Shown here: one piece after another, positions 3,341 to 46,506 of the stretch
Layout of the letters: each line of letters starts with the position of its first letter
Numbering within the stretch: position 1 is the stretch's first letter
Made by a program: the position numbers and the translations under genes
Assembly (NCBI RefSeq): GCF_028994805.1
Contig: NZ_JAJQQP010000001.1
Coordinates: 413,464 to 477,463 of the forward strand
Direction: 5' to 3'
Length of the DNA stretch: 64,000 bases
Origin: Promicromonospora iranensis
GTDB lineage: Bacteria; Actinomycetota; Actinomycetes; Actinomycetales; Cellulomonadaceae
The notes under the pieces: generated by a model
The model's input: the letters and a program-made list of their open reading frames with translations, nothing else
Database searches by the model: none
What the model was told of the DNA's origin: nothing

Positions 3341-4159
3341 TCAGATCAGGGTCTTGAGCGCCTGGATCACGCCGTGCTGGGAGATGTCGCCGACCGTCTC
3401 GTGGGCGATCGCCTTCACCGCCTCCGGGGCGTGCCCCATCGCGACCGCCCGAGCGGCCCAGCTCAGCATCTCGATGTCGTTCAGGCCGTCACCGACGGCG
3501 AACGTGTTGAGCTGCGGGACGCCGAGCGTGGCACGGATGGTCTCCAGCGACGTCGCCTTGCTCAGGTGCCGCGGTGTCACGTCGATCCAGTCCGGACCGG
3601 CCTGTGTGGCGGTGACGCCGTGCCGGCGGAGCGGCTCGAGCAGGTCCAGCACGTCCGGGCCGCGCAGGATGGCGCGCGACGCGGGCAGCACGCCCAGCCC
3701 GCCGACCGGCACCACCCGCTGCGCGCCGTTGACCTCGTGGGGAGCGAACGTCCGGTTCACGCGGTAGCCGACGCCGATCTCCTCGACGCCGATCTGCACG
3801 TCGGGGAACCGGCTCAGCGCCATCTGGGCGACCGGGCCGACGTCGAACGTCAGCACGTCCTCGAGCATGTAGCCGTTGGCGCAGGTGTCGCACAGCCGCG
3901 CCGTCACCGCTCCGTTGGAGGCGACCACCCAGCCGTCGGTGATCCCCAGCTCCTTGGCCACGGGCAGGATTCCCGTCAACGACCGACCCGACGCCAGGAC
4001 CACGTGATGCTTCCGGCTGCGCACGAGCTGCACGGCCAGAACCGTCGGCTCGGGCACTCGCTGCCCGGTCACCAACAGGGTCCCGTCGATGTCGAGAGCG
4101 ACCAGGTGAGGCGCATCGTTGCGCACACGCATGGACACCGGTTGGTCGTCCAGGATCAT
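3341..4159 (-). CDS. Cof-type HAD hydrolase, first paralog
   Basis: This is a haloacid dehalogenase-superfamily phosphatase of the Cof/YidA group, probably acting on small sugar phosphates or flavin phosphates in the cytosol. Motif I is ALDIDGTL, motif II is in VLASGRSLTG and motifs III/IV are in FAVGDGLNDIEMLSWA. A typeII C2 cap lies between them. The start at 4159 gives 272 residues and has a GGGGG tract 6 bases upstream. An in-frame ATG at 4132 begins nearer the first motif and cannot be excluded. It shares much of its sequence with the next gene downstream in coordinates (4296-5102), for example GWVVASNGAVTARL versus SWIVASNGAVTARL, so the pair is a tandem duplication. Confidence 0.88.
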   Translation of the reverse strand: MILDDQPVSMRVRNDAPHLVALDIDGTLLVTGQRVPEPTVLAVQLVRSRKHHVVLASGRSLTGILPVAKELGITDGWVVASNGAVTARLCDTCANGYMLEDVLTFDVGPVAQMALSRFPDVQIGVEEIGVGYRVNRTFAPHEVNGAQRVVPVGGLGVLPASRAILRGPDVLDLLEPLRRHGVTATQAGPDWIDVTPRHLSKATSLETIRATLGVPQLNTFAVGDGLNDIEMLSWAARAVAMGHAPEAVKAIAHETVGDISQHGVIQALKTLI

Positions 4160-4295: not shown

Positions 4296-5102
4296 TCAAA
4301 GCAGAGATCTGAGCACTTCTACAACGCCATCGTCCTCGATAGAGCCGGTCACTTCATCCGCAGCAGCCTGAACAGTGTCCGACGCATGGCCCATGGCCAC
4401 ACCTCGGCGGGCCCAGCGGAGCATGTCGATGTCGTTGCTGCCGTCGCCCACGGCGACGGTGTTCTCGGCGGCCACGCCGAGCTCCTTGCGTACCTCCTCC
4501 AGCGCGGACGCCTTGGTCACGCCCTGGGGGGCGATGTCCATCCACGCGGACCAGCCGACGGCATAGGTCACGTCGTCGAACCCGAGGCGCGCGGCGATCT
4601 CGTGGAACTCCTCGCTGGTCTCGCCAGGACTGCGCACCACCACGCGGGTGACGTGCCCCGCCCAGAGGTCCTCGAAGTCGACCACGCGATGCTCACCGTT
4701 CAGCTCCCCGTCCGGGAAGAGCTCGGTCATCCGGAAGCCGACACCGACGTCCTCGACCGCGTAGCGCGCGTGCGGGAGCTCCTCCTTGAGCATGCGGAGC
4801 ACCGGCTGCGGGTCGAACATCTCGACACGCTCCAGGGTGTATCCCATGTCGGCGGACGCGTCGAGGCGCGCGGTGACCGCGCCGTTCGACGCGACGATCC
4901 AGGAGTCCTCGATCTTGAGCTCCGCCGCGATGGGCGTCATGGCGATCAGCGACCGCCCCGAGGCCAGCACGACGTGGTGCCCGGCCGCTCGGACGGCGGC
5001 TACGGCGTCCCGCGCGGCATCGGAGAGCACTTCGTCATAGGTGACGAGCGTGCCGTCGATGTCGAGGGCTACGAGGAGCTTTCGGTCGATGTCGCTGGGC
5101 AC
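4296..5102 (-). CDS. Cof-type HAD hydrolase, second paralog
   Basis: This is a 268-residue HAD phosphatase with the same layout as its neighbour: LVALDIDGTLVTYDEVL (motif I, nucleophile Asp), VVLASGRSLIAM (motif II), and VAVGDGSNDIDMLRWARRG (motifs III/IV, Mg-binding Asp pair). The start is GTG at 5102. It lies about 150 bases downstream of serS, on the same strand and behind a long hairpin, and upstream of the first paralog. Substrates of this group are promiscuous phosphosugars; none can be assigned from sequence. In actinobacteria a Cof-type HAD gene often sits close to serS, which agrees with the context. Confidence 0.9.
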   Translation of the reverse strand: MPSDIDRKLLVALDIDGTLVTYDEVLSDAARDAVAAVRAAGHHVVLASGRSLIAMTPIAAELKIEDSWIVASNGAVTARLDASADMGYTLERVEMFDPQPVLRMLKEELPHARYAVEDVGVGFRMTELFPDGELNGEHRVVDFEDLWAGHVTRVVVRSPGETSEEFHEIAARLGFDDVTYAVGWSAWMDIAPQGVTKASALEEVRKELGVAAENTVAVGDGSNDIDMLRWARRGVAMGHASDTVQAAADEVTGSIEDDGVVEVLRSLL

Positions 5103-5184
5103 GATCGCAGCCTACCGACACGAACATGAACGCCAACCGACCAGGGCCCCGAGATCGGCGAAATGTCAGATGATCGCCATGGTT

Positions 5185-5239
5185 GTGAGCGTGACCGTTG
5201 CGCCTACGCGTCCGCGACAGGCGCAACGGTCGTGCTCAC
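5185..5239 (-). terminator. Long hairpin after serS
   Basis: Arms of 21 bases (5185-5205 and 5219-5239) pair at 19 positions around a 13-base loop, directly 3' of the serS stop. There is no U-run. It is likely a terminator or 3'-stabilising hairpin separating serS from the HAD gene. Confidence 0.75.
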
Positions 5240-5250
5240 GGCCCAAGGGG

Positions 5251-6522
5251 CTACTTGGTGGGTTCCAGGAGCTCCAGGCCGCCCAGGTACGGGCGCAGGG
5301 CCTCCGGGACGTACACCGAGCCGTCGGCCTGCTGGTGGTTCTCCAGGAGGGCGACGATCCAGCGCGTCGTACCGAGCGTGCCGTTCAGCGTGGCGACGGT
5401 CCGGGTGGAGCCGTCCTCGGTCCGCTCGCGGATGCCCAGGCGGCGGGCCTGGAACGTCGTGCAGTTCGACGTCGAGGTGAGCTCCAGCCAGCGCTCCTGC
5501 GTGGGCAGCCACGCCTCGCAGTCGAACTTGCGGGCCGCCGACGAGCCGAGGTCGCCCGCTGCCGTGTCGATGACGCGGTAGGGCAGCTCGACCTTGGCCA
5601 TCATGGCCTCCTCCCAGCCCAGCAGGCGCTGGTGCTCCGCCTCCGCGTCCTCCGGGGCGCAGTAGCTGAACATCTCCACCTTGTGGAACTGGTGCACGCG
5701 GATGATCCCGCGCGTGTCGCGGCCCGCCGAGCCGGCCTCGCGCCGGTAGCAGGCGCTCCAGCCGGCGTAGCGCATCGGCCCGTCCGACAGGTCGACGATC
5801 TCGTCGCTGTGATACCCGGCGAGGGCCACCTCGGAGGTGCCGACCAGGTACAGGTCGTCCTTCTCCAGGCGGTAGACCTCGTCGGCGTGCGCACCGAGGA
5901 AGCCGGTGCCCTGCATGGTCTCGGGCTTGACGAGGGTCGGCGTGATCATGGGCGTGAAGCCCTCCTGCACGGCCAGGTCCATCGCCATGTTCAGCAGCGC
6001 GAGCTCCAGGCGCGCACCGATCCCGGTGAGGAAGTAGAACCGCGCACCGGACACCTTGGCGCCCCGCTTGGTGTCGATGGCGCGCAGTCCCTCGCCCAGC
6101 TCCAGGTGGTCCTTCGGCTCGAAGCCCTCGGCCGCGAAGTCACGACGCTCGCCCACCTGCCGGAGCTCGACGAAGTCCTCCTCGCCGCCTGCCGGCGCGC
6201 CCTCGATCACGTTGGCGATGGAGTACAGCACGCGGTCGAGCTCCTGCTCGGCCTCGGTCGCCGTGGCCTGGTGGCTCTTGACGTCCTGGGCGAGCTGCTT
6301 GGTGCGTGCCAACAGCGCCTGCTTCTCGTCGCCCTGCGCCGTGGCCACCTGCTTGCCCAGGGACTTCTGCTCCGCGCGCAGGCTCTCGAACTCGGACAGG
6401 GACGAGCGGCGGCGCGCGTCGGCGTCGAGCGCCACGTCCACGAGGTCGGGGTCGTCGCCGCGAGCCACCTGGCTCGCTCGGACGACGTCGGGGTTGTCGC
6501 GCAGAAGTCGGAGATCGATCAC
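5251..6522 (-). CDS. serS: Seryl-tRNA synthetase
   Basis: This class II synthetase charges tRNA-Ser (and tRNA-Sec if present). The product is 423 residues, normal for bacterial SerRS. The N-terminal antiparallel coiled-coil arm that grips tRNA spans roughly residues 28-105 and is rich in Glu, Gln and Lys. Motif 2 is in [16 protein letters not shown] with the following RVHQFHKVE, and motif 3 is in [17 protein letters not shown]. The [13 protein letters not shown] stretch is also family-typical. The start is GTG at 6522, giving the canonical [17 protein letters not shown] opening. It follows the 1430-residue membrane-protein gene by only 9 bases and is probably cotranscribed with it. Confidence 0.97.
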
Positions 6523-20626: not shown

Positions 20627-22206
20627 CAGATCCTGCCGGTCCGGCGGTCGAGCAGGCCGACGCCGTCGTCGTCGGGGCCGGGATCGGCGGGCTCGTCACC
20701 GCGCACACGCTCGCCGCCCGCGGGCTGCGCGTCGTCGTGCTGGAGGCCGCCGACCGGGCCGGCGGGCCGATCCGGGGCGGGGCGTTCGACTCGCTGCCGG
20801 ACGTGCCGCTGGACCTGGGCGCCGAGTCGTTCGCGGTGCGGGGCGGCGCCGTCGAGCGGCTGGCCGGGGAGCTCGGCCTGACCGTCGAGGTGCCCGCCGG
20901 GCTCCCGGCCTGGGGCTACGCGGCCGGCCGGGCGTTCCCGCTGCCCGCCGCCGGGGTGCTGGGCATCCCGTCGCGGCCGTGGGCCCCGGACGTGCGGCGT
21001 GCCGTCGGCTGGCCGGGCGTGCTGCGCGGCTCGCTGGACCGCGTGCTGCCCGCGCGGCTCGTCGACACCACCGACCTCGGGACGCTCACGCGGTCGCGGC
21101 TCGGGTCGCGTGTGGCGGACCGGCTGGTGACCCCCGTCGCGGCCGGCGTGCACTCGGCGCCGCTCGACCGGCTCGACGTCGCCGCCGTCGCGCCCGGGCT
21201 GCTCGACGCGTACACACGGACCGGGTCCCTCTCGCGAGCGGTGGCGTCCCTGCGGGCGGCGGCTCCGGCGGGGTCGGCCGTGCGCGGGATCGACGGCGGC
21301 ATCCACGCGCTGGTGAATGCCCTGGTGGAGCGGCTGGACGTGCGGTTCGGGACCCGTGTGGTGGGTGTGGAACGGGTGCCGGCGGTCGAGCGGGCGCCCG
21401 GTGACGCCGCAGCAGGCGCCGGAACGGGTACCGCTGATCCCGGTCTGGCCGGACCGGGTGGCGCCAGCTGGCTGGTACGCCTCGAGGGGAGCGAGGCGGT
21501 ACTCGCAGCACGGTTGGTGCTCGCGACGCGCCCCGACTTCGGTCCCTTGCTGACTGCCGATCGCGACTTCGGTCGGTTGCCTCGAGATCGGTCAATCGAA
21601 CGACCGATCTCAGAGCGACCGACCGAAGTCGAAACGAAGGACGCGCAGCCGCCGTCCAGCGACCTGATCCCGCCGCCGGCGCCCGAGCGCGGCGCGGACA
21701 TCCGCCTCGTGACGCTGCTCCTGGAGGCTCCCGAGCTCGATACCGCCCCACGCGGTTCGGGGATGCTCGTCGCCCCCGGCACGGCGCCGGGCACGGTGCG
21801 CGCCAAGGCACTGACCCACGCGACGGCGAAGTGGCCGTGGCTGGCCCGGCGGGTGCGCGCCACCCTCGGGCCGGGGTGGCACGTGGTGCGGCTCAGCTAC
21901 GGCCGCATCGGCGAGCCGACGCCCGAACCCACCGCCGAGGAGGCCGCCCGCGATGCGTCTGCCCTGCTCGGCGTCGAGCTGGCCGGCCGGGTGCACGACA
22001 GCCTGCACCAGCGGTGGGACGGGTCGCTGCCCCCGCCGACCCCTGCCTACCGGGCCGCGATCAAGCAGTTCGAGCAGGCAGTACGGGCCGAGCCGGGCCT
22101 CGACGTCACGGGCGGCTGGATCGCGGGGACAGGCCTCGCGGCGATCGTCGGCCACGCGTGGCGCACGGCGGAACGGCTCGGGGATCCGGCACCGGACGGG
22201 CGCTGA
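20623..22206 (+). CDS. hemY: Coproporphyrinogen III/protoporphyrinogen oxidase with in-frame hairpin insert
   Basis: This FAD-dependent oxidase (527 residues) is of the HemY type. In actinobacteria these act on coproporphyrinogen III in the coproporphyrin branch (also named cgoX), which is family knowledge, not visible here. The FAD motif is VVVGAGIGGLVTAHTLAARG, with GAESFAVRGGAVERL downstream and the C-terminal GGWIAGTGLAAIVGHAW. Between the conserved core blocks is an extra segment. Residues about 303-337 are encoded by a 30-base direct repeat followed by a 30-bp near-perfect inverted repeat (21534-21631), giving a charged RDFGRLPRDRSIERPI insert. The GTG at 20623 overlaps the hemE stop by 4 bases. 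Confidence 0.92.
   Translation: MTDPAGPAVEQADAVVVGAGIGGLVTAHTLAARGLRVVVLEAADRAGGPIRGGAFDSLPDVPLDLGAESFAVRGGAVERLAGELGLTVEVPAGLPAWGYAAGRAFPLPAAGVLGIPSRPWAPDVRRAVGWPGVLRGSLDRVLPARLVDTTDLGTLTRSRLGSRVADRLVTPVAAGVHSAPLDRLDVAAVAPGLLDAYTRTGSLSRAVASLRAAAPAGSAVRGIDGGIHALVNALVERLDVRFGTRVVGVERVPAVERAPGDAAAGAGTGTADPGLAGPGGASWLVRLEGSEAVLAARLVLATRPDFGPLLTADRDFGRLPRDRSIERPISERPTEVETKDAQPPSSDLIPPPAPERGADIRLVTLLLEAPELDTAPRGSGMLVAPGTAPGTVRAKALTHATAKWPWLARRVRATLGPGWHVVRLSYGRIGEPTPEPTAEEAARDASALLGVELAGRVHDSLHQRWDGSLPPPTPAYRAAIKQFEQAVRAEPGLDVTGGWIAGTGLAAIVGHAWRTAERLGDPAPDGR
21564..21631. repeat. Inverted repeat inside hemY (30-nt arms, 8-nt loop)
   Basis: Arms 21564-21593 and 21602-21631 begin and end CGACTTCGGTCGGT and its complement. 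They pair at about 26 of 30 positions. A partial direct copy of the arm (CGACTTCGGTCCCTTGC) starts at 21534, exactly 30 bases earlier. The element is in frame (no stop) and its loop is 8 bases, as in other hairpins of the window. Confidence 0.85.
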
Positions 22207-32973: not shown

Positions 32974-34487
32974 GTGACCGACGACGAGAAGACGAAGCAG
33001 ACCGACACCACGGCGACGAGCGCCCCGGGACCGGCGAAGTCCGAGCCCACCGACGACCTCGTCACCACGGCGCACACGCTGAGCACGCCGCAGGGCGACC
33101 TGTCCTACACCGCGACGACCGGCCGGATCGTGCTGCGCCAGGAGGTCCTCACCGACGACAAGTACGACGGCCGCAAGCCCAAGGCCGAGGTCTCGATCAC
33201 GTACTACACGCTCGACCCCTCGACAGGCTCAGGACAGCGGACACCGACGTGACGCACCGGCCGGTGACCTTCGCGTTCAACGGTGGCCCCGGCTCGTCGT
33301 CGGTGTGGCTGCACCTGGGCCTGCTCGGGCCCCGCCGGGTCGACTCGGGCGACGTCGGCAACCTGACCGCACCGCCGTACGGGCTGGTCGACAACCTGGA
33401 GACGCTGCTGCACGTCTCCGACCTCGTGTTCATCGATCCCGTCTCCACGGGCTTCTCGCGCGCCACCGAGGGCGAGCAGGCCAAGCCGTTCCACGGGTTC
33501 ACGGGCGACCTCGAGTCCGTCGGCGAGATCATCCGCCTGTGGACGAGCCGCAACGACCGGTGGATGAGCCCCAAGTTCCTGATCGGCGAGTCGTACGGCG
33601 GCACCCGCGGCGCGGCCCTCGCGGAGTACCTGCAGCAGCGCTTCGGCATGTTCTTCAACGGCGTCATGCTCGTGGCTCCGGCGCTGAACCTGGAGGCGCT
33701 GTTCGACGGCGAGCACTCCAACCTGCCGCACCCCCTGTTCCTCCCGCTCTACGCCGCGACCGCGCAGTACCACGGCCTCCTCGGCGACCGCACGCTGGAC
33801 GACGTCGTCGCCGAGGCCAAGGACTGGGCCGAGACCTACGCCTCCATCCTCGCTCGCGGGGCACGCGTGCCCGACGACGAGCGCGCCGCCGCCGTCACGA
33901 AGATCGCGTCCCTGACCGGGCTCAGCGAGGACTACGTCGACCGCGCCAACCTGCGGCTCGAGCACACCCGCGTCTACGCGGAGCTGCTGCGCTCACGCCG
34001 TCTCGTCACGGGGCGCCTCGACACCCGGTTCACCGGGCCCGCCGACCACTACATCCACGAGCAGATGCCGTACGACCCGTTCATGACCGCCATCTCCGGG
34101 CCGTACACCGCGGCGCTGCACCACTACCTGCGCGGCGAGCTGGAGTACGAGCACGACGCGATCTACGAGGTGCTGTCCCGTCAGGTGCACCCCTGGTCGT
34201 ACAAGGAGTTCGAGGGCCAGGCGGTCGACGTCGCCGACAAGCTCGCCACGGCGATGATCATCAACCCGCACCTGCGGGTGCACATCGCCATGGGCCGCTA
34301 CGACGGCGGTGTGCCCGTCGAGGCGATCGAGTACAGCCTCGACCAGATGGCGATCCCGGCGTCCTACCGCGACCGCGTCGAGACCAAGGTGTACCCGGCG
34401 GGCCACATGATGTACATCCACCCCGAGTCCCGGGTGGCGCAGGCCGCGGACCTCGCGGACTTCGTCCGCCGCGCCTCCAACCGCTGA
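32974..34487 (+). pseudogene. S10 family serine carboxypeptidase gene, frameshifted by a 23-nt insertion
   Basis: The N-terminal part (GTG at 32974) reads AEVSITYYTLD and then hits an alien stretch ending TGSGQRTPT and a stop at 33252. The rest of the protein continues in another frame as VTHRPVTFAFNGGPGSSSVW from 33249. The catalytic parts are present: GESYGG with the nucleophilic Ser (about 33585), and GHMMYIHPESR near the end. Exactly 23 bases (33217-33239) containing CCTCGACAGGCTCAGGACA separate CTCGAC from the in-frame GACACCGACGTG, giving the frameshift. The downstream part could be translated from GTG 33249, but it would lack about 80 residues. Alternatives are programmed frameshifting or a sequence error, but the added bases look like a repeat. 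Confidence 0.75.
33217..33239. repeat. TCGACAGGCTCAGG-type short repeat inserted in S10 peptidase gene
   Basis: The 23-base segment contains TCGACAGGCTCAGG, which resembles a short repeat I recall from many high-GC genomes. I saw no second copy in this window. Its length is not a multiple of three, so it breaks the gene. Confidence 0.5.
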
Positions 34488-34492
34488 TCGGT

Positions 34493-34554
34493 GGTCGGCA
34501 GGACGTCACGTGTTCGGCACCTCGAGCTGCCGATCACCTGACGTCCTGCCGACC
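34493..34554. repeat. GGTCGGCAGGACGTC hairpin element, copy 1
   Basis: Arms of 27 bases (34493-34519 and 34528-34554) with 25 matches and an 8-base loop, immediately after the S10 stop. The arm is nearly identical to the element at 44976-45037 (right arms differ at one base). It also works as a terminator for the peptidase gene. Confidence 0.85.
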
Positions 34555-34593
34555 GGCGACGAGCTGCCAGGACCAGCGGGTAAGTTTCCTGGC

Positions 34594-35391
34594 GTGAGCG
34601 TCAGCCAGCAGCCAGTCTTCCGCCGTCGTGTCGCCGCCGAGGTGTGGATCGTGCTCGGGCTCAGCCTGGGCCAGTCCGCGGTGTACGCCCTCGTCAACAT
34701 CGCGGCCCGCCTCACTGCCGAGACCCCCCTCGCGGAGCAGACCGCCACGCTCAACGCGAGCCAGTCCGAGCGCCCGTACCTCGACCTGGTCTACCAGCTG
34801 CTGAGCATCGGTTTCGCGCTGGTCCCGGTGGCCCTGGCCCTCTATCTGCTCAGCGAGCACGGCCGCAGCGCCGTCCGCAGCCTGGGCCTGGACCGGTCCC
34901 GCCCGGCCCGGGACCTCGGCTGGGGTGTCGCCCTGGCCGCTGCCATCGGCATCCCGGGGCTCGCGTTCTATGTCCTCGGCCGCGCCCTCGGCATCACCGT
35001 CGAGGTGCAGGCCAGCGCCCTGGACACCCACTGGTGGACGGTCCCGGTGCTGCTGCTGAGCGCGTTCCAGAACGGGCTGCTCGAAGAGGTGATCGCCGTC
35101 GGCTACCTCTACGAACGCACGCGGGAGCTCGGCTGGAACCGGGTGAAGTTCATCGTCGCCAGCTCGCTCCTGCGCGGTTCGTACCACCTGTACCAGGGCA
35201 TCGGGCCGTTCCTCGGGAACGTGGTGATGGGCGTCGTCTTCTCGTGGTTCTACACCTCGCCGAGGTTCCAGCCCGACGGCCGGCGCCGTGTCATCCCGCT
35301 GGTCGTCGCCCATACCCTGCTCGACGTCGTGGCGTTCGTCGGCTACGCGCTCGTACCCGCCGAGTGGCGAGAGGCCCTGGGGATCCGGTGA
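34594..35391 (+). CDS. CPBP family intramembrane metalloprotease
   Basis: This integral membrane protease (265 residues) has the CAAX-protease/bacteriocin-processing (Abi) fold. The first motif E164-E165 is in LLEEVIAVGYLYERTREL, a basic region follows, then HLYQGIGPFLGNVVMG, and the last His in VVAHTLLDVVAFVG. About seven hydrophobic segments are visible. The GTG at 34594 is chosen because earlier residues read through the hairpin element. It may process or protect against small peptides; the substrate is unknown. It is followed by the flippase fusion at a distance of 107 bases. Confidence 0.88.
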   Translation: MSVSQQPVFRRRVAAEVWIVLGLSLGQSAVYALVNIAARLTAETPLAEQTATLNASQSERPYLDLVYQLLSIGFALVPVALALYLLSEHGRSAVRSLGLDRSRPARDLGWGVALAAAIGIPGLAFYVLGRALGITVEVQASALDTHWWTVPVLLLSAFQNGLLEEVIAVGYLYERTRELGWNRVKFIVASSLLRGSYHLYQGIGPFLGNVVMGVVFSWFYTSPRFQPDGRRRVIPLVVAHTLLDVVAFVGYALVPAEWREALGIR

Positions 35392-35498
35392 ACGAGGGCA
35401 GGCAGACACCAAGAACGTCACGGACCTGACCCGGATATAACGGGTGTCACTCCAGCACCTCCGGTCATGCGCGGCCCAACGCCCCTAGAATCCGATTC

Positions 35499-38051
35499 AT
35501 GTCCACCTCGCGCACCGGCCGTGCTGACGCCGGTGCCGAACTGACCGACGCACCGCACACCGCACCGGCCGCCTCCGACCTCGTTCGCGTCGTCGACACG
35601 CCGGAAGAGCGCGTGCGGCACCCCCGCGCGCTGGTGTGGATGATCGGGTGCGCGCTCGGCGTCGCGGGCGTCATGTTCCTGTCGGTGGCCGCGCACGGCA
35701 CCACGGCGGGCGTCACCGAGGACGTCCGAAGCTTCAACGACCTGCTGGCCACGCTGCTGTTCGTGCCCGTCGCGGTGCTGCAGGGTCTGGTCAGCCTGTT
35801 CGCCCCGGTCGCCGTGATGATCGAGCTGGGGGTCCGCCGCCTGGGCCGGCAGATCGTCGAGTCGATCATCGGTGCCGTCCTCGGCCTGCTCCTGGGGGTC
35901 CTCACCACCGTCCTGCTGCACCAGTTCGGCTCGGACGAGCTCGTGCGGGGCATGTCGGTGTGGGAACGCGGGACCGGCTACGTGCTGGCCATCCCGGAGT
36001 ACGCGGTAGCCGTGACGGCGATGCTCACGGTCGCCGGCCCGGCCACCCGGCGTCGGACGGTCCGCATCTCGTGGAACCTGATGTTCGCGGCCCTGCTCAT
36101 CGTGCTGATCACCGGCCAGGTGTCGCTGCCGGGCGTGCTCGTCGCCCTGCTGCTCGGCCGGCTCGCCGGCTCGTCGGTGCAGTACGTCTCGGGCACCCGC
36201 AGCGAGCGGGCCTACGGGGCGGACCTCGTGGCGGCCGTGCGGCGCGCGGGCTTCGTGCCGACATCGCTGGCCCGCGTGCACGCCGAGCCGGAGCAGGCCG
36301 GCGACCCGGCCACGGCGTCCGCCCAGGCCGCCCGGAGCGCCGCCCCGGACGCAGCGCCGGCCGACCCGGTAGCCCTCGCGCTGAGCCGCGCGGGCGACCA
36401 CCGCGTGTACGCCCTCTACTGCGACGACGACGTGCGCCGCGACGTCGTGGTGCTCGACGGCGACCGTCAGGTCGTCGGGCTCATCACGCGCCTCTGGCGG
36501 GCCCTGCGGCTGCGCGGCATCGAGGGCCGGGCCGCCATCTCGCTCAAGGCCGTCGCCGAGCGCACCGCCCTCCTGTCCTTCGCCGCGACCGCTGCCGGGG
36601 TCCGCACCCCCCGGCTCCTGGGGATCGGCGAGTTCGGCGACTCGATCGCACTCGTCCTGGAGCACGCCTCCCCCGCCCGGTCGCTCCGGGACCTGCCCGA
36701 CGACGAGGTGCACGACGACGTCCTCGCCGAGGCCTGGGAACAGCTCGGCCGGGCCCACGGCACCGGGCTCACGCACCGTGCCCTCACGCAGGACGTCCTG
36801 CTCACGCACCGTGACCCCGACGGCGGCCCGCACGTGTGGATCACCGGCTGGGAGCAGGGCGACATCGCGTCGTCACCGCTGTCGCGGCGCCTCGACCTCG
36901 TGCAGATGCTGGCGCTCATCGGGCTGCGGGTCGGCCCGCGCCGCGCCGTCGCCTCGGCGGTCCGCGCCCTGCCCGACGCCGACATCGCCGCCATCGGGCC
37001 CCTGATCCAGTCGATCGCCCTGCCGCGCACCACCCGCGAGGAGGTGCGCCGCGCGAAGGGCCTCCTCGGAGAGCTGCGGGACGCGCTGGTGGAGCGGCTG
37101 CCCGAGGCCAGCGTGCAGCCGCAGCGCATCTCCCGGTTCAGCGCCCGCACGGTGTTCACCACGACGCTGATGATCATCGCGGTCGCCGTGATCGTCACCA
37201 CCATCAACTTCAACGAGATCGCGCAGGCCGTGCGCGAGGCCAACCCCTGGTGGATCGCGGTGGCGTTCGCTCTCGCCATCACCACCTGGTTCGGCGCCGG
37301 CCTCACGCTCGTCGCGTTCTCGCCGGCCCGCGTGCCGATCGGGCGCGCCACGCTCACTGCGGCGGCGGGCTCGTTCGTGGCGCTGGCGGCCCCGGCCGGG
37401 ATCGGTCCGGCGGCCCTGAACCTGCGGCTCCTGACCCAGCGCGGGGTCTCGATGTCGATGGCGGTCGCCACCGTGGCGCTGGTGCAGGTCTCGCAGTTCG
37501 TCGTCACGGTGCTGCTGCTCGTGGCCCTGTCGATCTTCACCGGGTCCGGTGCGCTCGTCGAGCTGCCGTCACCGGCGGTCCTGTTCACGCTGGCGGGCGT
37601 CGCGCTCGTCGTCGTCGCGACGCTGATGGTGCCGCCCGTGCGGCGCTGGGGCATGGGGTACATCGGGCCGCGGCTGCGGCAGGTGTGGCCCCGGCTCGCC
37701 CAGATGCTGAGCCACCCCGGCCGGCTGGCGCTCGGTGTGGCGGGCAACCTCATCATGACGCTCGGCTACATCGTCGCGCTGTGGTGCTGCCTCGCAGCCT
37801 TCGGGGAGTCGCTCTCGCTGGTCGACATCGCGCTCGTCAACCTCGTCGGCAACGCGCTGGGTGCGCTCATCCCGACGCCCGGCGGCCTGGGCGGTGTCGA
37901 GGGCGCCCTGACGGCCGGTCTGACGGCCGCCGGCGTGCCGGCCACCATCGCGTTCTCCGCGACCATCCTGTACCGCCTGTGCACCTACTGGGGCCGCGTG
38001 CCGATGGGCTGGGTCGCGATGAAGTACCTGGAGCGCAAGGGCGACCTCTGA
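35499..38051 (+). CDS. Kinase-like domain fused to a lysylphosphatidylglycerol-synthase-type membrane domain
   Basis: The 850-residue membrane protein has an N-terminal helix block (residues about 45-235), then a soluble middle (about 290-530). The middle contains LTQDVLLTHRDPDGGPHVWITGWEQGDIASSP, a kinase/APH-like pattern with an altered catalytic loop. It also has an earlier nucleotide-region-like stretch FAATAAGVRTPRLLGIGEF. The C-terminal ten-helix block (about 550-845) carries ALIPTPGGLGGVEGALTAGL, the conserved signature of the UPF0104/LPG-synthase TM flippase family. Such fusions are known in actinobacteria as putative lipid flippases with a regulatory kinase-like part; the function is not demonstrated. 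The ATG is at 35499. Confidence 0.82.
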   Translation: MSTSRTGRADAGAELTDAPHTAPAASDLVRVVDTPEERVRHPRALVWMIGCALGVAGVMFLSVAAHGTTAGVTEDVRSFNDLLATLLFVPVAVLQGLVSLFAPVAVMIELGVRRLGRQIVESIIGAVLGLLLGVLTTVLLHQFGSDELVRGMSVWERGTGYVLAIPEYAVAVTAMLTVAGPATRRRTVRISWNLMFAALLIVLITGQVSLPGVLVALLLGRLAGSSVQYVSGTRSERAYGADLVAAVRRAGFVPTSLARVHAEPEQAGDPATASAQAARSAAPDAAPADPVALALSRAGDHRVYALYCDDDVRRDVVVLDGDRQVVGLITRLWRALRLRGIEGRAAISLKAVAERTALLSFAATAAGVRTPRLLGIGEFGDSIALVLEHASPARSLRDLPDDEVHDDVLAEAWEQLGRAHGTGLTHRALTQDVLLTHRDPDGGPHVWITGWEQGDIASSPLSRRLDLVQMLALIGLRVGPRRAVASAVRALPDADIAAIGPLIQSIALPRTTREEVRRAKGLLGELRDALVERLPEASVQPQRISRFSARTVFTTTLMIIAVAVIVTTINFNEIAQAVREANPWWIAVAFALAITTWFGAGLTLVAFSPARVPIGRATLTAAAGSFVALAAPAGIGPAALNLRLLTQRGVSMSMAVATVALVQVSQFVVTVLLLVALSIFTGSGALVELPSPAVLFTLAGVALVVVATLMVPPVRRWGMGYIGPRLRQVWPRLAQMLSHPGRLALGVAGNLIMTLGYIVALWCCLAAFGESLSLVDIALVNLVGNALGALIPTPGGLGGVEGALTAGLTAAGVPATIAFSATILYRLCTYWGRVPMGWVAMKYLERKGDL

Positions 38052-38082
38052 CCGCACGCCGACCGCGCCGCGCTCCGGACGT

Positions 38083-38121
38083 GCGAAGGCCCGACCCCCT
38101 GGTGGGGAGCCGGGCCTTCGC
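38083..38121. terminator. Terminator between flippase fusion and HU genes
   Basis: GCGAAGGCCCG and its complement (38083-38093 and 38111-38121) form an 11-bp stem. The two genes converge here, and an A-tract/T-tract (TAAAAATCA) lies on the HU side. Confidence 0.8.
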
Positions 38122-38148
38122 GTCGCTGTAAAAATCAGCGGCGAAGCG

Positions 38149-38430
38149 TCACTTCGCGACGGCCTTCTTCAGCAGCGAGCCGGCGCTGATCTTGACACCG
38201 AAGTTCGCCGGGATCTGGATCTCCTCGCCGGTGCGCGGGTTACGACCCGTGCGGGCGGCACGCTCGACGCGCTCGGCCGAGAGGAAGCCCGTCACCTTGA
38301 CGGCCTCGCCCTTGGCGAGCGACTCGATCAGCACCTCCTGGAAGGCGTTGAGCGCGGCCTCGGCCTCGGTCTTGTTGATCTCAGCCTTGTTGGCGATGGC
38401 CGAGACGAGCTCGGACTTGTTGAGCGACAT
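38149..38430 (-). CDS. hup: HU family DNA-binding protein
   Basis: This nucleoid-associated histone-like protein has 93 residues. It reads MSLNKSELVSAIANKAEINK, with the beta-arm RTGRNPRTGEEIQIPAN that enters the minor groove. There is no Lys/Ala-rich C-terminal extension as found in mycobacterial HU. The ATG at 38430 follows AAGGGAA. It stands alone and is expected to be highly expressed. Confidence 0.96.
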   Translation of the reverse strand: MSLNKSELVSAIANKAEINKTEAEAALNAFQEVLIESLAKGEAVKVTGFLSAERVERAARTGRNPRTGEEIQIPANFGVKISAGSLLKKAVAK

Positions 38431-38703
38431 GCGGTTCCCTTCTTCGGTCACGTCGTGCGGCGGTACCCGCCCGACGACGAGGCCCCATACTGCCAGCAGA
38501 TCGGCAGGAATTCGCGGAGAACGGGCACTTCTACGGCGAGTCGTGGGTAACTTTCTGCTCTCAGAGGACGCGAACCTGTGTACGAGCCTGTGGACGACGA
38601 CGGTGAAGGGCCTCCGAGGCAGTGTCACCCCGCACTATCCGATGACTTCCGCAACCCATAGCGGTCTACCGTTCCGGTACTGCTACGCCAATGAGAGGAA
38701 ATC

Positions 38704-40146
38704 GTGGAGAAACCGCCGCCCGAGGTCCCAGCCACCGTCGAAGGCGCCGTGAACGGCTCCCAGGACGCCACGGAACCCGGCGTTCCCGCTCCCGCGGACG
38801 TGCCGCACGCCCGCCGCAACCTGGTCGTGCTCGTGTTCAGCAACCTGCTGGCGGGGGTCGGGGTCGCGTCGGGTGCCGCCGTCGGCGCGCTGCTCGCCGA
38901 GAGCCTAGGTGGGACGTCCATGGCCGGCCTGGCACAGGCCGTCGGCGTGCTCGCCGCCGCGGTCGCCTCGATCCCGCTCGCGACGCTCGCGCAGGTCCGC
39001 GGACGCCGGTGGGCGCTGTCGCTCGGCTACGCCCTGTCCACGATCGGCGCGCTGCTCATCGTGACGGCGGCGGTGGTGGGGCAGCTCGTCGTGCTGCTGG
39101 TGGGCCTCACCCTGTACGGCGTCGCGAACGCGACCAACCTGCAGTCCCGGTACGCGGCCGCCGACAACGTCGGTTCGGGGGCCCGGGCCAGGACCATGTC
39201 GGTCGTCCTGTGGTCCACCACGGTCGGCTCCGTGGTCGGGCCCAACCTCGCGGCGCCCGGTGCGGTGGTGGGCAGCGGGCTCGGCGTGCCCGCGCTCGGC
39301 GGTCCCTATCTCTTCTCGATCGTCGCGTACCTGCTGGCCGGGCTCGTGCTCGCGGTGCTGTACCGGGACCCGGTGGGCAGCGTCGCGGTGGCGGCCGCCA
39401 CCACCGCCGCCGGGCGGCCGAGGACGCAGGACGACGGCGCCGCGCGCGCCGAGCCCCGGCGGACCGGTGCCCTGGCCGCGCTGCGGTGGGCGTGGGCCCA
39501 CCCGCGGGCACGGTTCGCCGTGGTGACCACCGCCGTGGCGCACGGCGTGATGATCATGGTGATGGTGATGACGCCGGTGCACATGCAGCACGGCGGGATG
39601 TCGCTGCAGCTCGTCGGCATCGTGATCAGCCTGCACGTGCTGGGGATGTTCGCGTTCAGCCCGGTGTTCGGGTGGCTGGCCGACCGGTTCGGCCCGCTGC
39701 GGGTCGCCGTCGGCGGGATGGTGCTCCAGGGTGCGGCGGTCGTCCTGGGCTTCACGGCGGCGGCTTTGGTGCCCGAATCCGGTACGGCGGCCGGTGCGCA
39801 CGCCGGGCACGGCGGCGCCGGGCCGGCACTCGACACGGAGGTGCTCACGGCGGTCGCGCTCGTGCTGCTCGGGCTCGGCTGGTCGGCGTGCGTGATCGCG
39901 TCGTCGGCGGTGCTGGCTTCCGTGGCGGAGCCGCACGTCAAGCTGCCCCTGCAGGGTGCGACGGACGCGCTGATGAACTACTTCGGCGCGGGCTCCGCCG
40001 CTCTCGCCGGCCCGCTCCTGGCCTGGGGCGGGTTCCAGGCGGTCAACACGGCGGGCGCCATCCTGCTCGTGCCGGCCGTCGTGACGGTGGTCCTGGCGGT
40101 CCGAGCGGCGAGGACACCGCGGACCGCCGACGACCCGGCACGCTAG
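38704..40146 (+). CDS. MFS transporter
   Basis: This twelve-helix major facilitator has 480 residues. The N-terminal half includes RRNLVVLVFSNLLAGVGVA and QVRGRRWALSLGYA, with the loop 2-3 motif region weakly conserved. The C-terminal half has VFGWLADRFGPLRVAVGGM (the motif A repeat) and a His-rich loop GAHAGHGGAG near residue 365. The central linker is long and Arg-rich. The start is GTG at 38704 behind GAGAGGAA. The substrate is unknown; its neighbour is a copper-binding CopC. It ends in a palindromic CTAG shared with the stop of that gene. Confidence 0.85.
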   Translation: MEKPPPEVPATVEGAVNGSQDATEPGVPAPADVPHARRNLVVLVFSNLLAGVGVASGAAVGALLAESLGGTSMAGLAQAVGVLAAAVASIPLATLAQVRGRRWALSLGYALSTIGALLIVTAAVVGQLVVLLVGLTLYGVANATNLQSRYAAADNVGSGARARTMSVVLWSTTVGSVVGPNLAAPGAVVGSGLGVPALGGPYLFSIVAYLLAGLVLAVLYRDPVGSVAVAAATTAAGRPRTQDDGAARAEPRRTGALAALRWAWAHPRARFAVVTTAVAHGVMIMVMVMTPVHMQHGGMSLQLVGIVISLHVLGMFAFSPVFGWLADRFGPLRVAVGGMVLQGAAVVLGFTAAALVPESGTAAGAHAGHGGAGPALDTEVLTAVALVLLGLGWSACVIASSAVLASVAEPHVKLPLQGATDALMNYFGAGSAALAGPLLAWGGFQAVNTAGAILLVPAVVTVVLAVRAARTPRTADDPAR

Positions 40147-40895
40147 CCCTTCGGCTTGTCGTCCGGGTTGGCGTTGTGCCTCTCGCCGTCCAGGTCGTCC
40201 GGGTCGGGCTCGTTGGCCTGGCGCAGCCGGTCGTTCTCGAGGATCTTGCGGCGCATCATCACCACGACCCCCAGCACGACCAGCACCGCGGCGACGATCC
40301 CACCGGTCACGGCCAGGCCGCTGACACCGGCGCCGTCCCCGGCACCGGCCAGCTGGGACGGCGCGGTCGGCTGCTCGACGCCGTCGGGGGCCGACGTGCC
40401 GGCCTCGGCCGGCTCGGCCTCCTGGGTGGACATCTCGGGCTCTTCGGTGGACTCGGCGCTCGGGGTCGCGGTGGGCTCGGCGGCGCCCTCCACCACGTAG
40501 CTGAACTCGCCGTCGATGGGGTGGCCGTCGGAGGAGACCACGTGCCACGCGACGTCGTAGCTGCCGGCGGGCAGGTCATCGGCGATCTGGGCGGTCACCA
40601 CCTTGTCGTCGACCTGGATGTCCTGGCCCTGCGCGGTGGCGCCGTCGGGGCCGACCAGGGCGATCTCGATGCCCGTGTCGAGGGGCGCCGCGCTGAAGGT
40701 GAGCGAGATGCTCGTCGGGTGCTCGTCGAGCGTCGCGCCGTCCTTCGGGTCGGACGACAGGAGCTGGTCGTGAGCGCTCGCCGGACCGCCCACCAGCAGG
40801 AGTGCCGCACAGGTGAGCACCGCCGCGAACAGAGTGATCACGCGGACGAGGCGACGGTTCCCGGGCCGAGCCAGGGCAACGGAGACGGCAGGCAT
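40143..40895 (-). CDS. CopC domain copper-resistance protein
   Basis: This secreted or anchored CopC-like protein has 250 residues. The signal peptide ends ...PASA, leaving the copper-ligand His at the mature N-terminus (HDQLLSSDPKDGATL). The CopC beta-sandwich then runs to SDGHPIDGEFSYVV, where the second ligand His lies. An Ala/Glu/Pro/Thr linker and one C-terminal transmembrane helix (VTGGIVAAVLVVLGVVVMM) followed by a charged tail suggest membrane anchoring. It is convergent to the MFS gene with a 4-base overlap. The ATG at 40895 is the best start. Confidence 0.88.
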   Translation of the reverse strand: MPAVSVALARPGNRRLVRVITLFAAVLTCAALLLVGGPASAHDQLLSSDPKDGATLDEHPTSISLTFSAAPLDTGIEIALVGPDGATAQGQDIQVDDKVVTAQIADDLPAGSYDVAWHVVSSDGHPIDGEFSYVVEGAAEPTATPSAESTEEPEMSTQEAEPAEAGTSAPDGVEQPTAPSQLAGAGDGAGVSGLAVTGGIVAAVLVVLGVVVMMRRKILENDRLRQANEPDPDDLDGERHNANPDDKPKG

Positions 40896-40987
40896 ACGTG
40901 GCACCTTACCTGCCCCGGTCCGGGGCGTGAGCGTCGCCGCGGTCTGTCCGCCACGAGCGTGACGACCGCGCCCGCGACCCGGCCCGA

Positions 40988-43096
<2,109 letters not shown>

Positions 43097-43189
43097 GGGT
43101 TCGAGTCTATGGATGCGGGCGCAGGGTGCCCGTCGTCGCACGAGCTCGTGCACCGTCGATGTCAGTGGTGGCTGGCATCCTTTCCGGCC

Positions 43190-43234
43190 ATGGGGATCCT
43201 CACCGACTACTTCATCGCTGCCTCCGACGCCTGA
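43190..43234 (+). pseudogene. Possible relic: isolated N-terminus MGILTDYFIAASDA
   Basis: A 14-codon frame in the nadE upstream gap reads MGILTDYFIAASDA then a stop. This resembles the opening of actinobacterial hypothetical proteins that begin MG(I/V)LTDYF and continue for 150 residues. It could be a truncated gene or chance; there is no good ribosome site. Confidence 0.25.
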
Positions 43235-43359
43235 GCCGTCCGGCCGAGCGCTGTGCGGCAGCCCGCGCGACGACCGATGAGATCCGCCGTCGGGCGGCGT
43301 CTGTCCTGCCAGAACGCGGTGCCCGCCGGTACCGCACGTCCATGTGAAAGGGAGTCTCC

Positions 43360-43656
43360 ATGTCATTCCAGGCCTATCTCGACGCCGTCGAGACCAAGAC
43401 CGGCCACACCCCGCGCGAGCTCATCAGGCTCGCGGAGGAGCGTGGGTTCGACGCGTCCACCAAGGCCGGTCCGATCCTCGAGTGGCTCAAGGAGGACTAC
43501 GGTCTGGGCCGCGGGCACGGCATGGCGATGGTCCACGTCATCACCAAGGGCCCGCAGATCAGCACCAAGCACGTGGGCACGGCCGGGACGCACCGCGACG
43601 AGTCCGACACCCTCTGGCTCGACGGCAAGGCGACCAACCCGGCGGCGTCCGGCTGA
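43360..43656 (+). CDS. DUF4287 domain protein
   Basis: This is a 98-residue cytosolic protein. It reads MSFQAYLDAVETKTGHTPRE, then STKAGPILEWLKEDYGLGRGHGMAMVHVI, the pattern of the DUF4287 family. Function unknown; family members are small and single-domain. The ATG at 43360 is preceded by AAAGGGAG. It is monocistronic by position, with an amidohydrolase gene about 56 bases after its end. Confidence 0.85.
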   Translation: MSFQAYLDAVETKTGHTPRELIRLAEERGFDASTKAGPILEWLKEDYGLGRGHGMAMVHVITKGPQISTKHVGTAGTHRDESDTLWLDGKATNPAASG

Positions 43657-43712
43657 GTGGCCGGCCGGGCCGGGTGTCCTGACGCCTCGTTACCTCGGGT
43701 AATGATGTACCC

Positions 43713-44948
43713 ATGACAACCCGCTCCACCATCGCCATCGTCAACGCCCACGTCGTCCCCGTCGCCACCGAGGCGATCGAGCACGGGACGGTCCTCATCG
43801 AGGACGGCGTCATCACCGCCGTCGGGCCGGACGTGGCCGTCCCGGACGGCATCCGGACCATCGACGCGCAGGGCCGGTGGCTCCTGCCGGGGTTCGTCGA
43901 GGCCCACGGCCACCTCGGTGTGCACGAGGAGGGCGAGGGCTGGGCCGGCAACGACACCAACGAGATGACCGATCCTGACGGTTCCGCGCTGCGCGCCCTC
44001 GACGCCATCCACATCGACGAGGAGGGCTTCCGTGACGCTCTCGCCGGCGGCGTGACGACGGCGGTCATCAAGCCGGGGTCGGGCAACCCGATCGGCGGCC
44101 AGACCGTCGCGATCAAGACCTGGGGCGGCCGTACCGTCGACGAGCAGGTCCTCAGCGACTCGGTGTCGGTCAAGAGCGCGCTCGGCGAGAACCCGAAGCG
44201 CGTCTACGGGGACAAGAAGCAGCTGCCGTCGACCCGCCTGGGCGTCGCCGCGGTGATCCGCAAGGCGTTCGTCGACGCCCAGAACTACATCGCCAGGCGT
44301 GACGCCGCGGCGGCCGAGGGCAAGCCGTTCGAGCGCGACCTCGCCAAGGAGACCCTGGCCCGCGTCCTGGCCGGCGAGCTCGCCTGGGACCAGCACACCC
44401 ACCGCGCCGACGACATCGCGACGGCGATCCGGCTCTCCGAGGAGTTCGGCTACCGCCTCGTCATCAACCACGGTACCGAGGGTCACAAGGTCGCCGACGT
44501 CCTCGCCGAGAAGGACATCCCGGTCATCTACGGCCCCATGTTCACGTCCCGCTCCAAGGTCGAGCTGCGCGACCGCTCGATCCTCAACCTGGTCAAGATG
44601 GCCGACGCCGGCGTCCGTGTCGCGATCACCACCGACCACCCCGTCATCCCGATCAACTTCCTGGTGCACCAGGCGACCTTCGCCCTGCGCGACGGCCTGC
44701 CCTGGGCCACGGCCCTGGCCGCGATCACCACCAACCCGGCGTCGTTCCTCGGCCTGGACGACCGGGTGGGCGCCATCAAGGAAGGGCTCGACGGCGACGT
44801 CGTGCTCTGGTCCGGCGACCCGCTCGACACGACGGCGCGCGCCGAGCGCGTCTTCATCACAGGCACCGAGGTCTACACCTGGGACCCCGCCGCGGAAGCC
44901 GGCCGCGGAGCCGGCCGCGTCCTGGAACGCTCAACCCGCTTCGCCTGA
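43713..44948 (+). CDS. Amidohydrolase (imidazolonepropionase-like)
   Basis: This metal-dependent hydrolase has a TIM-barrel fold and 411 residues. It has the N-terminal beta-domain MTTRSTIAIVNAHVVPVATE and the first metal-site region LLPGFVEAHGHLGVHEEG, where the usual HxH is written HGH. A lysine or glutamate follows in TTAVIKPGSGNPIGGQ, and the late Asp ligand sits in VAITTDHPVIPINFL. Known relatives hydrolyse cyclic amides or small amidine substrates; the exact substrate is unclear. No operon partners are evident, and it is followed by the second hairpin element. Confidence 0.85.
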   Translation: MTTRSTIAIVNAHVVPVATEAIEHGTVLIEDGVITAVGPDVAVPDGIRTIDAQGRWLLPGFVEAHGHLGVHEEGEGWAGNDTNEMTDPDGSALRALDAIHIDEEGFRDALAGGVTTAVIKPGSGNPIGGQTVAIKTWGGRTVDEQVLSDSVSVKSALGENPKRVYGDKKQLPSTRLGVAAVIRKAFVDAQNYIARRDAAAAEGKPFERDLAKETLARVLAGELAWDQHTHRADDIATAIRLSEEFGYRLVINHGTEGHKVADVLAEKDIPVIYGPMFTSRSKVELRDRSILNLVKMADAGVRVAITTDHPVIPINFLVHQATFALRDGLPWATALAAITTNPASFLGLDDRVGAIKEGLDGDVVLWSGDPLDTTARAERVFITGTEVYTWDPAAEAGRGAGRVLERSTRFA

Positions 44949-44956
44949 CCCCACGC

Positions 44957-45037
44957 GGTCGGCAGAACGTCGCATGGTCGGCAGAACGTCAGGTGGTCGG
45001 TACCCCGGAATGCCGATCACCTGACGTTCTGCCGACC
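44957..45037. repeat. GGTCGGCAGAACGTC hairpin element, copy 2
   Basis: A direct copy of the unit GGTCGGCAGAACGTC (44957-44971) precedes a hairpin with 27-base arms (44976-45002 and 45011-45037) and an 8-base loop. The arms pair at 25 of 27 positions, with the other two as wobbles. The unit spacing is 19 bases. It sits between the amidohydrolase and DUF418 genes, and the DUF418 stop lies inside the left arm. Confidence 0.9.
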
Positions 45038-46269
45038 GCCCCACCGGGCGGTCCGGCCCCCTCATCCAGCAGCCTGGGTCCGTAGGTGAGTCGGCGCAGC
45101 AGGACTTCGAACGGCCCGCGCTTGCCCGCCTTGTCGAGCAGGACCGCGACGACGACGGTGAGCACCCAGGTCCCGAACGCGAACCCGAACGCCGTCAGGT
45201 AGCCCATGTCGTCACCGAGGCCGAAGCCCCAGGCGGTGAGCAGCGGCGCCATGATGATCGACTGCAGCAGGTAGCAGGTGAGCGAGCGCTCGCCGACTGC
45301 CGCGAGTGCTCCCGGCACGCCGCGGCGTCCGTAGCCGCGGAGCTTGTGGGCGAGGAGCGCGAAGCCGCAGATGTACCCGATGCCGGCGTACATGCCACCC
45401 AGGAGGGTCAGCCCGACCGCGACCGTGTGGGTCCCTCCCGCCGGGTCCCACACGCCGAGGCCGATGAGGGCGACCGGCAGCGAGCTGGCGAGGTTCACGG
45501 CCATGCCGGTGAGGAACACGAGCTTGAGTCGGCGCAGGTGCTCCTCGGGGCGGTCGAGCCAGCCTGAGCGTTGGAGCAGGATGCCGACGAGGATCATCGG
45601 GATGAACTCCGCCAGGACGAGCGCCCCGGCCATGTTGATGAGCGAGGAGAGCGGCCCGAAGGCGAGCTGCTCCAGGTACGGGTGCAGCTCGGCGGGGGCC
45701 GGCGACTCGCCACCCTCGCTCGCGGTGACCCAGCTCATCACCGGCACCGTGATCACGAGCACGTACACCGAGCTCCAGATCAGCCAGCGCTTCAGGGCGG
45801 GTGTGGAGAGGTGCAGGAAGAACAGGGCGACGAGCGCGGTGGCGCCGTAGCGGGCGAGGATGTCGCCGTCGAACAGGAAGGTGGCGTGGACCAGGCCGAA
45901 GGCCACGAGCCACCAGGAGCGGCGCCGCATCACCGTGCGGACGTCCTTGACCTCCATGCCCCGCGTGAACATGCGCGAGGCCATGACGGCCATGCCGAAG
46001 CCGAAGAGGACGGCGAACATCGGACGGGAGCGCTCGGCCACGATGAGCTGCTCGAAGAACAGTCCGATGTGGTCGGCGGTGCCGAGGCCGGAGAGGTGGC
46101 CGTAGGCGTCGGACTCCCTGCCCCACAGGTAGAGCGGGACGTTGGCGAGCGCGATGAACAGGAGCATCCCGCCCCGGGCGATGTCGGGGGCGAGCGAGCG
46201 CTCGGACCTGGTGATCGGCCTTGGCGTTCGAGGCGGCCCGGCGACGGCGGCTGGGGGTGCGGTGGTCAC
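44989..46269 (-). CDS. DUF418 domain membrane protein
   Basis: This polytopic membrane protein has 426 residues and about ten hydrophobic segments. The DUF418 hallmark GERSLTCYLLQSIIMAPLL is present, as are FAVLFGFGMAVMASRM and YAGIGYICGFALLAHKL. The family is of unknown function, possibly acyltransferase-like membrane proteins. The start is GTG at 46269 with AGGAGTCCCT upstream. The last residues (VGRTSGDRHSGVPTT) are encoded by the hairpin element and are not part of the family domain. The open frame therefore ends in a repeat. Confidence 0.85.
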   Translation of the reverse strand: MTTAPPAAVAGPPRTPRPITRSERSLAPDIARGGMLLFIALANVPLYLWGRESDAYGHLSGLGTADHIGLFFEQLIVAERSRPMFAVLFGFGMAVMASRMFTRGMEVKDVRTVMRRRSWWLVAFGLVHATFLFDGDILARYGATALVALFFLHLSTPALKRWLIWSSVYVLVITVPVMSWVTASEGGESPAPAELHPYLEQLAFGPLSSLINMAGALVLAEFIPMILVGILLQRSGWLDRPEEHLRRLKLVFLTGMAVNLASSLPVALIGLGVWDPAGGTHTVAVGLTLLGGMYAGIGYICGFALLAHKLRGYGRRGVPGALAAVGERSLTCYLLQSIIMAPLLTAWGFGLGDDMGYLTAFGFAFGTWVLTVVVAVLLDKAGKRGPFEVLLRRLTYGPRLLDEGAGPPGGAVGRTSGDRHSGVPTT

Positions 46270-46382
46270 AGGGACTCCTCAGGTACGGGCGCTGGTTGTC
46301 GTTGCGAGCCTAGGGAGCACCGGGTGCACAAAGCGGTAGTGCAGACCCCCCGACCTCGCCTCCGGTCTGCGGTACCCACCGC

Positions 46383-46424
46383 GGTTCTCCGGGCCGCCAG
46401 AACCTCAGATGGTCGGTAGAACCT
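46383..46424. repeat. Degenerate relative of the GGTCGG-AGAACG element
   Basis: AGAACC occurs at 46399 and 46418, spaced 19 bases like the units of the element at 44957. Over 46398-46424 it matches at most positions (CAGAAC.TC..ATGGTCGG.AGAAC.T). A GGTTCT...AGAACC hairpin (46383-46404) overlaps it. It lies in the upstream region of the two-component genes. Confidence 0.6.
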
Positions 46425-46506
46425 TGCTCGGGCGGGCACCCCGGTGCCGGGTGAGGTGGTACCGGAGGCCGAGGCGTTCGGGAGCGGCGCGGCGTAGCGT
46501 GCGAGC

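What the first reader, a model, noticed from the sequence alone, without database searches (positions are those of the whole stretch)
34493..46424. Dispersed hairpin family with near-identical arms (GGTCGGCAGAACGTC unit)
Seen in sequence: two hairpins 10.5 kb apart (34493-34554 and 44976-45037) have 27-nt arms, 8-nt loops, and right arms that differ at one base. The second is preceded by an extra copy of the unit with 19-nt spacing, and a third degenerate relative with the same 19-nt spacing is at 46398-46424. Flanking genes are unrelated. This looks like a small mobile or copied palindromic element (REP/MITE-like) with no transposase seen here.
Basis: partly seen in the sequence, partly recalled or inferred. 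Interest (0 to 1): 0.75.

Follow-up and report, generated by a model that had tools for sequence, protein, structure and literature searches.

The report
Dispersed palindromic hairpins in Promicromonospora
The two hairpins belong to a family of 62-base palindromes scattered through a group of actinobacteria, mostly just after genes but sometimes in frame inside them, and the enzyme that usually moves such repeats was not found.

Summary
The two 62-bp hairpins (27-nt arms, 8-nt loop) belong to a dispersed family: 90 strand-hits, about 45 elements, in this Promicromonospora genome. It occurs in all 13 genus genomes searched, in 5 of 12 others of the family, and in 0 of 14 from other families. 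Of 32 examined copies outside called genes, 26 lie within 50 nt of a stop codon facing them (null 17.5%), and 12 sit between convergent genes (null 8.4%). Three more lie inside genes (cydC, lutC, mshB-like), all in the same frame; in cydC and lutC some relatives lack the segment. Orthologous copies differ at 6.8% of sites against 23.4% in their flanks, and at 3 of 560 block positions. No Y1/RAYT transposase was found in 23 genomes, and no excess of target duplications. Best reading: a REP- or RPE-like miniature palindromic element without a RAYT, probably working as a two-way transcript-end hairpin at gene ends. Dispersal and in-frame residence are shown; termination is inferred and the mover is unknown. 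It is a new variant of a known kind.

The parts
34493..34554 (.). Family-A palindrome 1, 5 nt after the stop of ORF 33249-34487; orthologue present in P. iranensis with 3 differences
44976..45037 (.). Family-A palindrome 2, 27 nt after the stop of ORF 43713-44948; the stop of the minus-strand ORF 44989-46269 lies inside it; orthologue in P. iranensis with 6 differences
44957..44975 (+). Extra 19-nt unit in front of palindrome 2 (no partner on the other side)
46392..46425 (+). Two degenerate units 19 nt apart; possible decayed copy, not significant alone
21564..21631 (.). Distant relative (family F, 68 nt) lying in frame inside a protoporphyrinogen-oxidase-like ORF

Best explanation
This is a family of miniature palindromic elements of fixed 62-bp geometry (paired at least 2 bp further in half of the copies), dispersed as whole units by an activity that I could not identify and for which no Y1/RAYT transposase was found. 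Copies survive in two kinds of place. Most sit just after stop codons, often between convergent genes, where the transcript of either strand would fold into a very stable hairpin; there the element most likely acts as a two-way transcript-end (terminator or 3'-protecting) hairpin. A few sit in frame inside genes, where they add about 22 residues. Shown: dispersal, geometry, location, covariation between arms among copies, differences in presence between species, in-frame residence in genes, and slower change than the flanks. Inferred: that the in-gene copies were inserted into a short form, transcription through the copies, termination, and recognition of the TCGG.A and GTCA blocks by some factor. 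Unknown: how the element moves.
For: Copies and range. Location against a null. Fold on both strands. Covariation on 34 copies: 55 cells changed on both sides against 31.5 in shuffles (0 of 500 as high) and 5-28 in slid versions. At the site of palindrome 1, P. sukumoe, MEB111 and P. kroppenstedtii have an ordinary GC-rich hairpin starting at the 5th or 6th base after the same stop, where palindrome 1 starts at the 6th. In cydC the segment is present in 9 of 11 genus genomes readable there and absent in 2; residues 422-445 have no counterpart in the solved CydC 8ipq; G014 and G015 skip them, and G015 and G020 show short forms. In lutC it is present in 7 of 12 and absent in 5. mshB-like gene. 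In G014, of another genus, a family hairpin lies in frame at a different place in cydC, the linker before the ATPase domain. Orthologous copies: 84 of 1240 sites differ against 374 of 1600 in flanks; blocks 3 of 560 against 81 of 680 elsewhere. Recent spread: three identical 62-mers at unrelated places in G015.
Against: No T-run follows: TTTT within 12 nt in 1 of 34 copies on one strand and 0 of 34 on the other, so a classical intrinsic terminator is not supported. REPs of other bacteria also lie at gene ends, so location alone does not prove termination. Compensatory double changes between own and P. iranensis orthologues are few (3 Watson-Crick to Watson-Crick; 5 coincident changes against 2.0 expected), so the covariation among copies may be old or may come from template-switch repair. 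In G022, of the same family, CydC has a different segment of about 20 residues at the insert position, so replacement of a segment followed by loss in some species is not excluded. The shared open frame is about what the column frequencies give (97.7% per copy), and the G014 in-gene copy uses another frame, so the frame is no independent sign of coding selection. No empty site was clean enough to show insertion ends.
Confidence: 0.7

Rival explanations
1. True REP/REPIN elements moved by a RAYT (Y1 tyrosine transposase).
For: Palindromic, dispersed, at gene 3' ends, with intragenic copies, as reported for REPs.
Against: PF01797 found nothing in 23 genomes including all 13 of the genus, while it rang in 5 of 14 control genomes. 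No terminal GTAG/CGTC tag, and 27-bp arms instead of 5-13 bp stems. No transposase family among the 25 commonest Pfam families of 67 neighbouring proteins; 86 further families were not displayed.
Confidence: 0.06
2. MITEs: ends of a lost or distant DDE transposon, moved through 27-bp terminal inverted repeats.
For: Inverted arms, small size, dispersal; extra units outside the arms could be end-binding sites.
Against: No target duplications beyond chance (mean 0.76 against 0.76 for shuffled partners). Nearly all arms in the listed own-genome hits have a partner at the 62-bp spacing, and no long element with these ends was noticed. The arms co-vary and the geometry is fixed across genera.
Confidence: 0.12
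3. Not mobile: ordinary gene-end terminators whose likeness comes from a shared binding factor and selection alone.
For: Blocks almost unchanged between orthologues (3 of 560); many other gene-end hairpins exist in these genomes.
Against: Whole units lie in frame inside cydC and lutC and are missing in some relatives; three identical copies stand at unrelated places in G015.
Confidence: 0.1
4. DNA-uptake words arranged as inverted pairs in terminators, as in Neisseria and Haemophilus.
For: Inverted words at gene ends; words differ between genera; DUS pairs form terminators (passages of PMC2397512).
Against: Of 104 hits of the 15-mer, 63 lie in or beside the 35 collected copies; the other 41 compare with 26 controls, and about 10 elements were not collected, so single words show little or no excess. 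About 45 elements, not hundreds to thousands of words.
Confidence: 0.04

Closest known systems
Rickettsia palindromic elements (RPE)
   Same: Palindromic, dispersed, found in frame inside unrelated genes and adding a short peptide (passages of the review PMC10969869).
   Different: RPEs are described there as about 150 bp with nearly half of them inside genes; here 62 bp with 3 of 35 examined copies inside genes. Different phylum; no sequence kinship tested.
CGTC-tagged REPs (Di Nocera 2013, PMC3733652)
   Same: No dedicated transposase, downstream of genes and between convergent genes, intragenic units, often 20-100 units, uneven among species (parts 1-2 of 8, passages, and part 1 of 2 of the Discussion seen). 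They include RPE-4 and RPE-6.
   Different: Those have 8-9 bp stems, 4-5 nt loops, an unpaired CGTC tag and a 3-nt tail; here 27-bp arms and no unpaired tag. The word Actinobacteria does not occur in that paper's main text.
REPINs / GTAG REPs with RAYT
   Same: Gene-end location, hairpin, dispersal.
   Different: No Y1 transposase found, no GTAG tag.
DUS inverted pairs acting as terminators
   Same: Inverted words at gene ends.
   Different: Little or no excess of single words.

Membership tests
REP/REPIN with RAYT | Y1 (RAYT) transposase in the genome | tested here: not met
   0 of 23 genomes; 5 of 14 controls ring
Tagged REPs (GTAG or CGTC) | unpaired tetranucleotide tag at one end, stem 5-13 bp, 20-40 bp in all | tested here: not met
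   62 bp, 27-bp arms paired to the ends, no unpaired tag (definition)
Rickettsia palindromic elements | palindrome in frame in protein genes, absent in some orthologues | tested here: met
   cydC and lutC; the mshB-like gene is in frame, relatives not examined
Rickettsia palindromic elements | sequence kinship with described RPE families | not tested
   no RPE sequence was fetched
MITE | target-site duplication | tested here: not met
   no excess over shuffled partners; no clean empty site
MITE | autonomous partner with the same terminal repeats | tested here: inconclusive
   none noticed in the listed hits; own genome is in 31 contigs
Intrinsic terminator | hairpin followed by a T-run | tested here: not met
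   1 of 34 and 0 of 34; the scan of the region does not list these sites
DNA uptake sequence | genome-wide excess of single words | tested here: not met
   41 hits outside the collected copies against 26 controls, with about 10 elements not collected
Described RNA family | Rfam match | tested here: not met
   0 matches at gathering score in the window

The most novel reading that the evidence does not exclude
A protein-coding, mobile palindrome of the Rickettsia kind in Actinobacteria, kept at fixed 62-bp geometry while its words change from genus to genus. A dedicated recognition factor (not Y1) would read the TCGG.A and GTCA blocks, both to move the element and to use it as a transcript-end module that can take the place of ordinary terminators.
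Probability: 0.25. Interest if true: 0.75.

Novelty: new variant of a known kind. Interest (0 to 1): 0.5.

Why it matters
In-frame palindromes are described for Rickettsia and for tagged REPs of other phyla. Here they occur in an actinobacterial family with many species sequenced, so gain, loss and tolerance of such inserts can be dated. The lack of a RAYT makes the open question of how RAYT-less palindromes move directly testable. The same junctions in related species carry different gene-end hairpins, which offers a natural series for studying turnover of transcript ends.

Tried and rejected
RAYT link: no Y1 transposase. Rfam: nothing in the window. Viral contigs: one exact degenerate pattern, no match. 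Phages and plasmids: one 101-base query, no match. Chromosomal clustering near ori or ter: positions in G001 and G005 with dnaA were looked at by eye only; spread out with local clusters, no clear pattern. Recurrent neighbour gene: none obvious. Gene conversion as the cause of conservation: the orthologue is strictly nearest in 14 of 20 pairs with 1 tie and 5 against, so it is not the main reading but not excluded. Literature, one open-access library only: searches listed 0 papers; some searches listed 1, 7, 1 and 1, judged by title and abstract start, none on this element; two searches listed 6 each, of which I opened PMC2267715 (abstract, passages), PMC2397512 (passages), PMC10969869 (passages) and PMC3733652 (parts as told above). 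The lutC nucleotide alignment anchored wrongly for two genomes and is not used; its protein alignment is.

Limits. Genes were called by my own simple codon-usage script, not a standard gene finder. The P. iranensis stretches were partly chosen around known copies there, so the share of shared copies (20 of 26) is biased upwards; 9 of 35 copies had no flank in the fetched stretches. The six counted as absent include one with only one flank and two with gaps over 1 kb. One marginal copy (L079:13281, 13 mismatches) is in the counts but was left out of the alignment and (frames). Strand-hits of the model count each palindrome up to twice, and only 138-150 candidates per genome were scored, so copy numbers are approximate. 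In one search, 13 loci were examined and 2 dropped (a partial one and a paralogue); the AC04 copy is shortened at the loop. G012 and G011 are named from contig lengths. The names of some gene products are recalled and come from no call.

Full report
The observation. The two hairpins are as described: 62 bp, 27-nt arms, 8-nt loop, right arms differing at one base, with one extra unit 19 nt before the second. They fold to -62.3 to -70.1 kcal/mol on either strand. The third site (46392-46425) is only suggestive.

A dispersed family. The window lies at G000:C1:413464-477463 of a 5.84-Mb genome in 31 contigs; the closest named relatives are Promicromonospora species. The 27-nt arm with up to 3 mismatches has 59 hits in this genome and 0 for the reversed control. 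I collected 35 copies from fetched stretches and aligned 34. A covariance model built from them has 90 strand-hits here. It hits 18 of 39 genomes: all 13 of the genus, 5 of 12 others of the family (two of these with only 5 and 1 hits), and 0 of 14 from other families. P. citrea has only 5 strand-hits. In other genera the 62-bp geometry and the TCGG blocks remain while other letters change. In G015 three copies are letter-identical at unrelated places, with flanks that differ beyond a few bases, which is direct evidence of recent spread.

Anatomy. Positions TCGG (3-6), A8, GTCA (13-16), TCGG (22-25), A27 and their partners hardly vary among copies. Positions 10-12, 19-21 and 28-30 vary and co-vary. 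Covariation exceeds every one of 500 shuffles and all slid versions, with the tool's caution that related sequences can do so without structure. Extra 19-nt units stand outside some arms. Flanking GT on the left and AC on the right are common (20 and 22 of 34), and pairing runs at least 2 bp further in 17 of 34.

Where copies lie. Of 35 copies, 3 are inside called genes. Of the other 32, 26 are within 50 nt of a facing stop (null 17.5%), 12 are convergent (null 8.4%) and 3 divergent (null 28.4%). The null is every 62-bp placement in intergenic gaps of 364 kb of this genome.

Turnover and constraint. Among 26 copies with a flank found in P. iranensis, 20 have an orthologous hairpin and 6 do not. 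Hairpins differ at 84 of 1240 sites; 40-nt flanks differ at 374 of 1600. The conserved blocks changed at 3 of 560 positions, the rest at 81 of 680. The orthologue is strictly nearest in 14 of 20 pairs, with 1 tie, so most copies keep their own letters. Across species the same junction carries different hairpins. After the stop before palindrome 1, P. sukumoe, MEB111 and P. kroppenstedtii have an ordinary hairpin, AC04 another one further on, and P. thailandica and Myceligenerans none. At junction 5102-5251 MEB111 has a full copy, this genome and P. iranensis show what looks like a one-armed remnant, and this genome also has another hairpin there (by eye). After 44948 the hairpins differ again between species.

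Inside genes. In cydC the element encodes about 22 residues in the form SAERQxVG..YRSPDxLPT. Of 13 loci examined I dropped a partial one and a paralogue; of the remaining 11, 9 have the segment and 2 lack it. The solved CydC chain 8ipq lacks these residues, G014 and G015 skip them, and G015 and G020 show short forms. G022, however, has a different segment of about 20 residues there. Insertion into a short form is thus the simpler reading, but not proven. In lutC 7 of 12 loci have it and 5 lack it. A third copy lies in an mshB-like gene in the same frame; its relatives were not examined. In G014 a family hairpin of that genus lies in frame, in another frame, at a different place in cydC, which looks like an independent event. 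The frame used in this genome is open in 34 of 34 copies on both strands, the others in at most 16 and 1, but column frequencies alone predict 97.7%. A distant relative lies in frame in a protoporphyrinogen-oxidase-like ORF of the window.

What moves it. No Y1 transposase was found in 23 genomes searched. No excess of target duplications is seen, and no transposase is among the 25 commonest Pfam families of 67 neighbours (86 further families not displayed). The viral pattern scan and the phage and plasmid queries gave no match. The mover is unknown.

Comparison. The behaviour is that of Rickettsia palindromic elements and of CGTC REPs, which also lack a dedicated transposase. The tag, stem length and size that define tagged REPs are not met. 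I therefore file it as a new variant of the palindromic-element kind, not as a member of the REP/RAYT or tagged-REP families. That no paper on this element was found rests in one open-access library.

Noticed in passing
21564-21631: Family-F hairpin in frame inside a protoporphyrinogen-oxidase-like ORF; P. iranensis has it with paired changes in both arms, MEB111 lacks it.
   Followed up: partly
44989-46269: A DUF418/YeiB-like minus-strand ORF lies between palindrome 2 and the degenerate units at 46392-46425, with its stop codon inside the palindrome. It is absent at this junction in six of seven relatives compared; the seventh runs into masked bases.
   Followed up: partly
L305:1728-1789: In G014 (another genus) a family hairpin lies in frame in the linker of cydC, a different place from the Promicromonospora copies.
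   Followed up: partly
L178-L192, L193-L212: Many other gene-end hairpin families with tandem units in their arms in this genus, such as CGAGGTAGTCACC, GTTGAGTGCTGGGTATTTG and, in P. thailandica, GCCGAGATCTGGTG.
   Followed up: partly
3264-3341 and orthologous junctions: A convergent junction with a hairpin in each of five species, of differing sequence (two of the five partly alike).
   Followed up: partly
L068:7098: Beside an orthologous copy P. iranensis lacks about 170 nt present here, so gene ends next to copies may be unstable.
   Followed up: no
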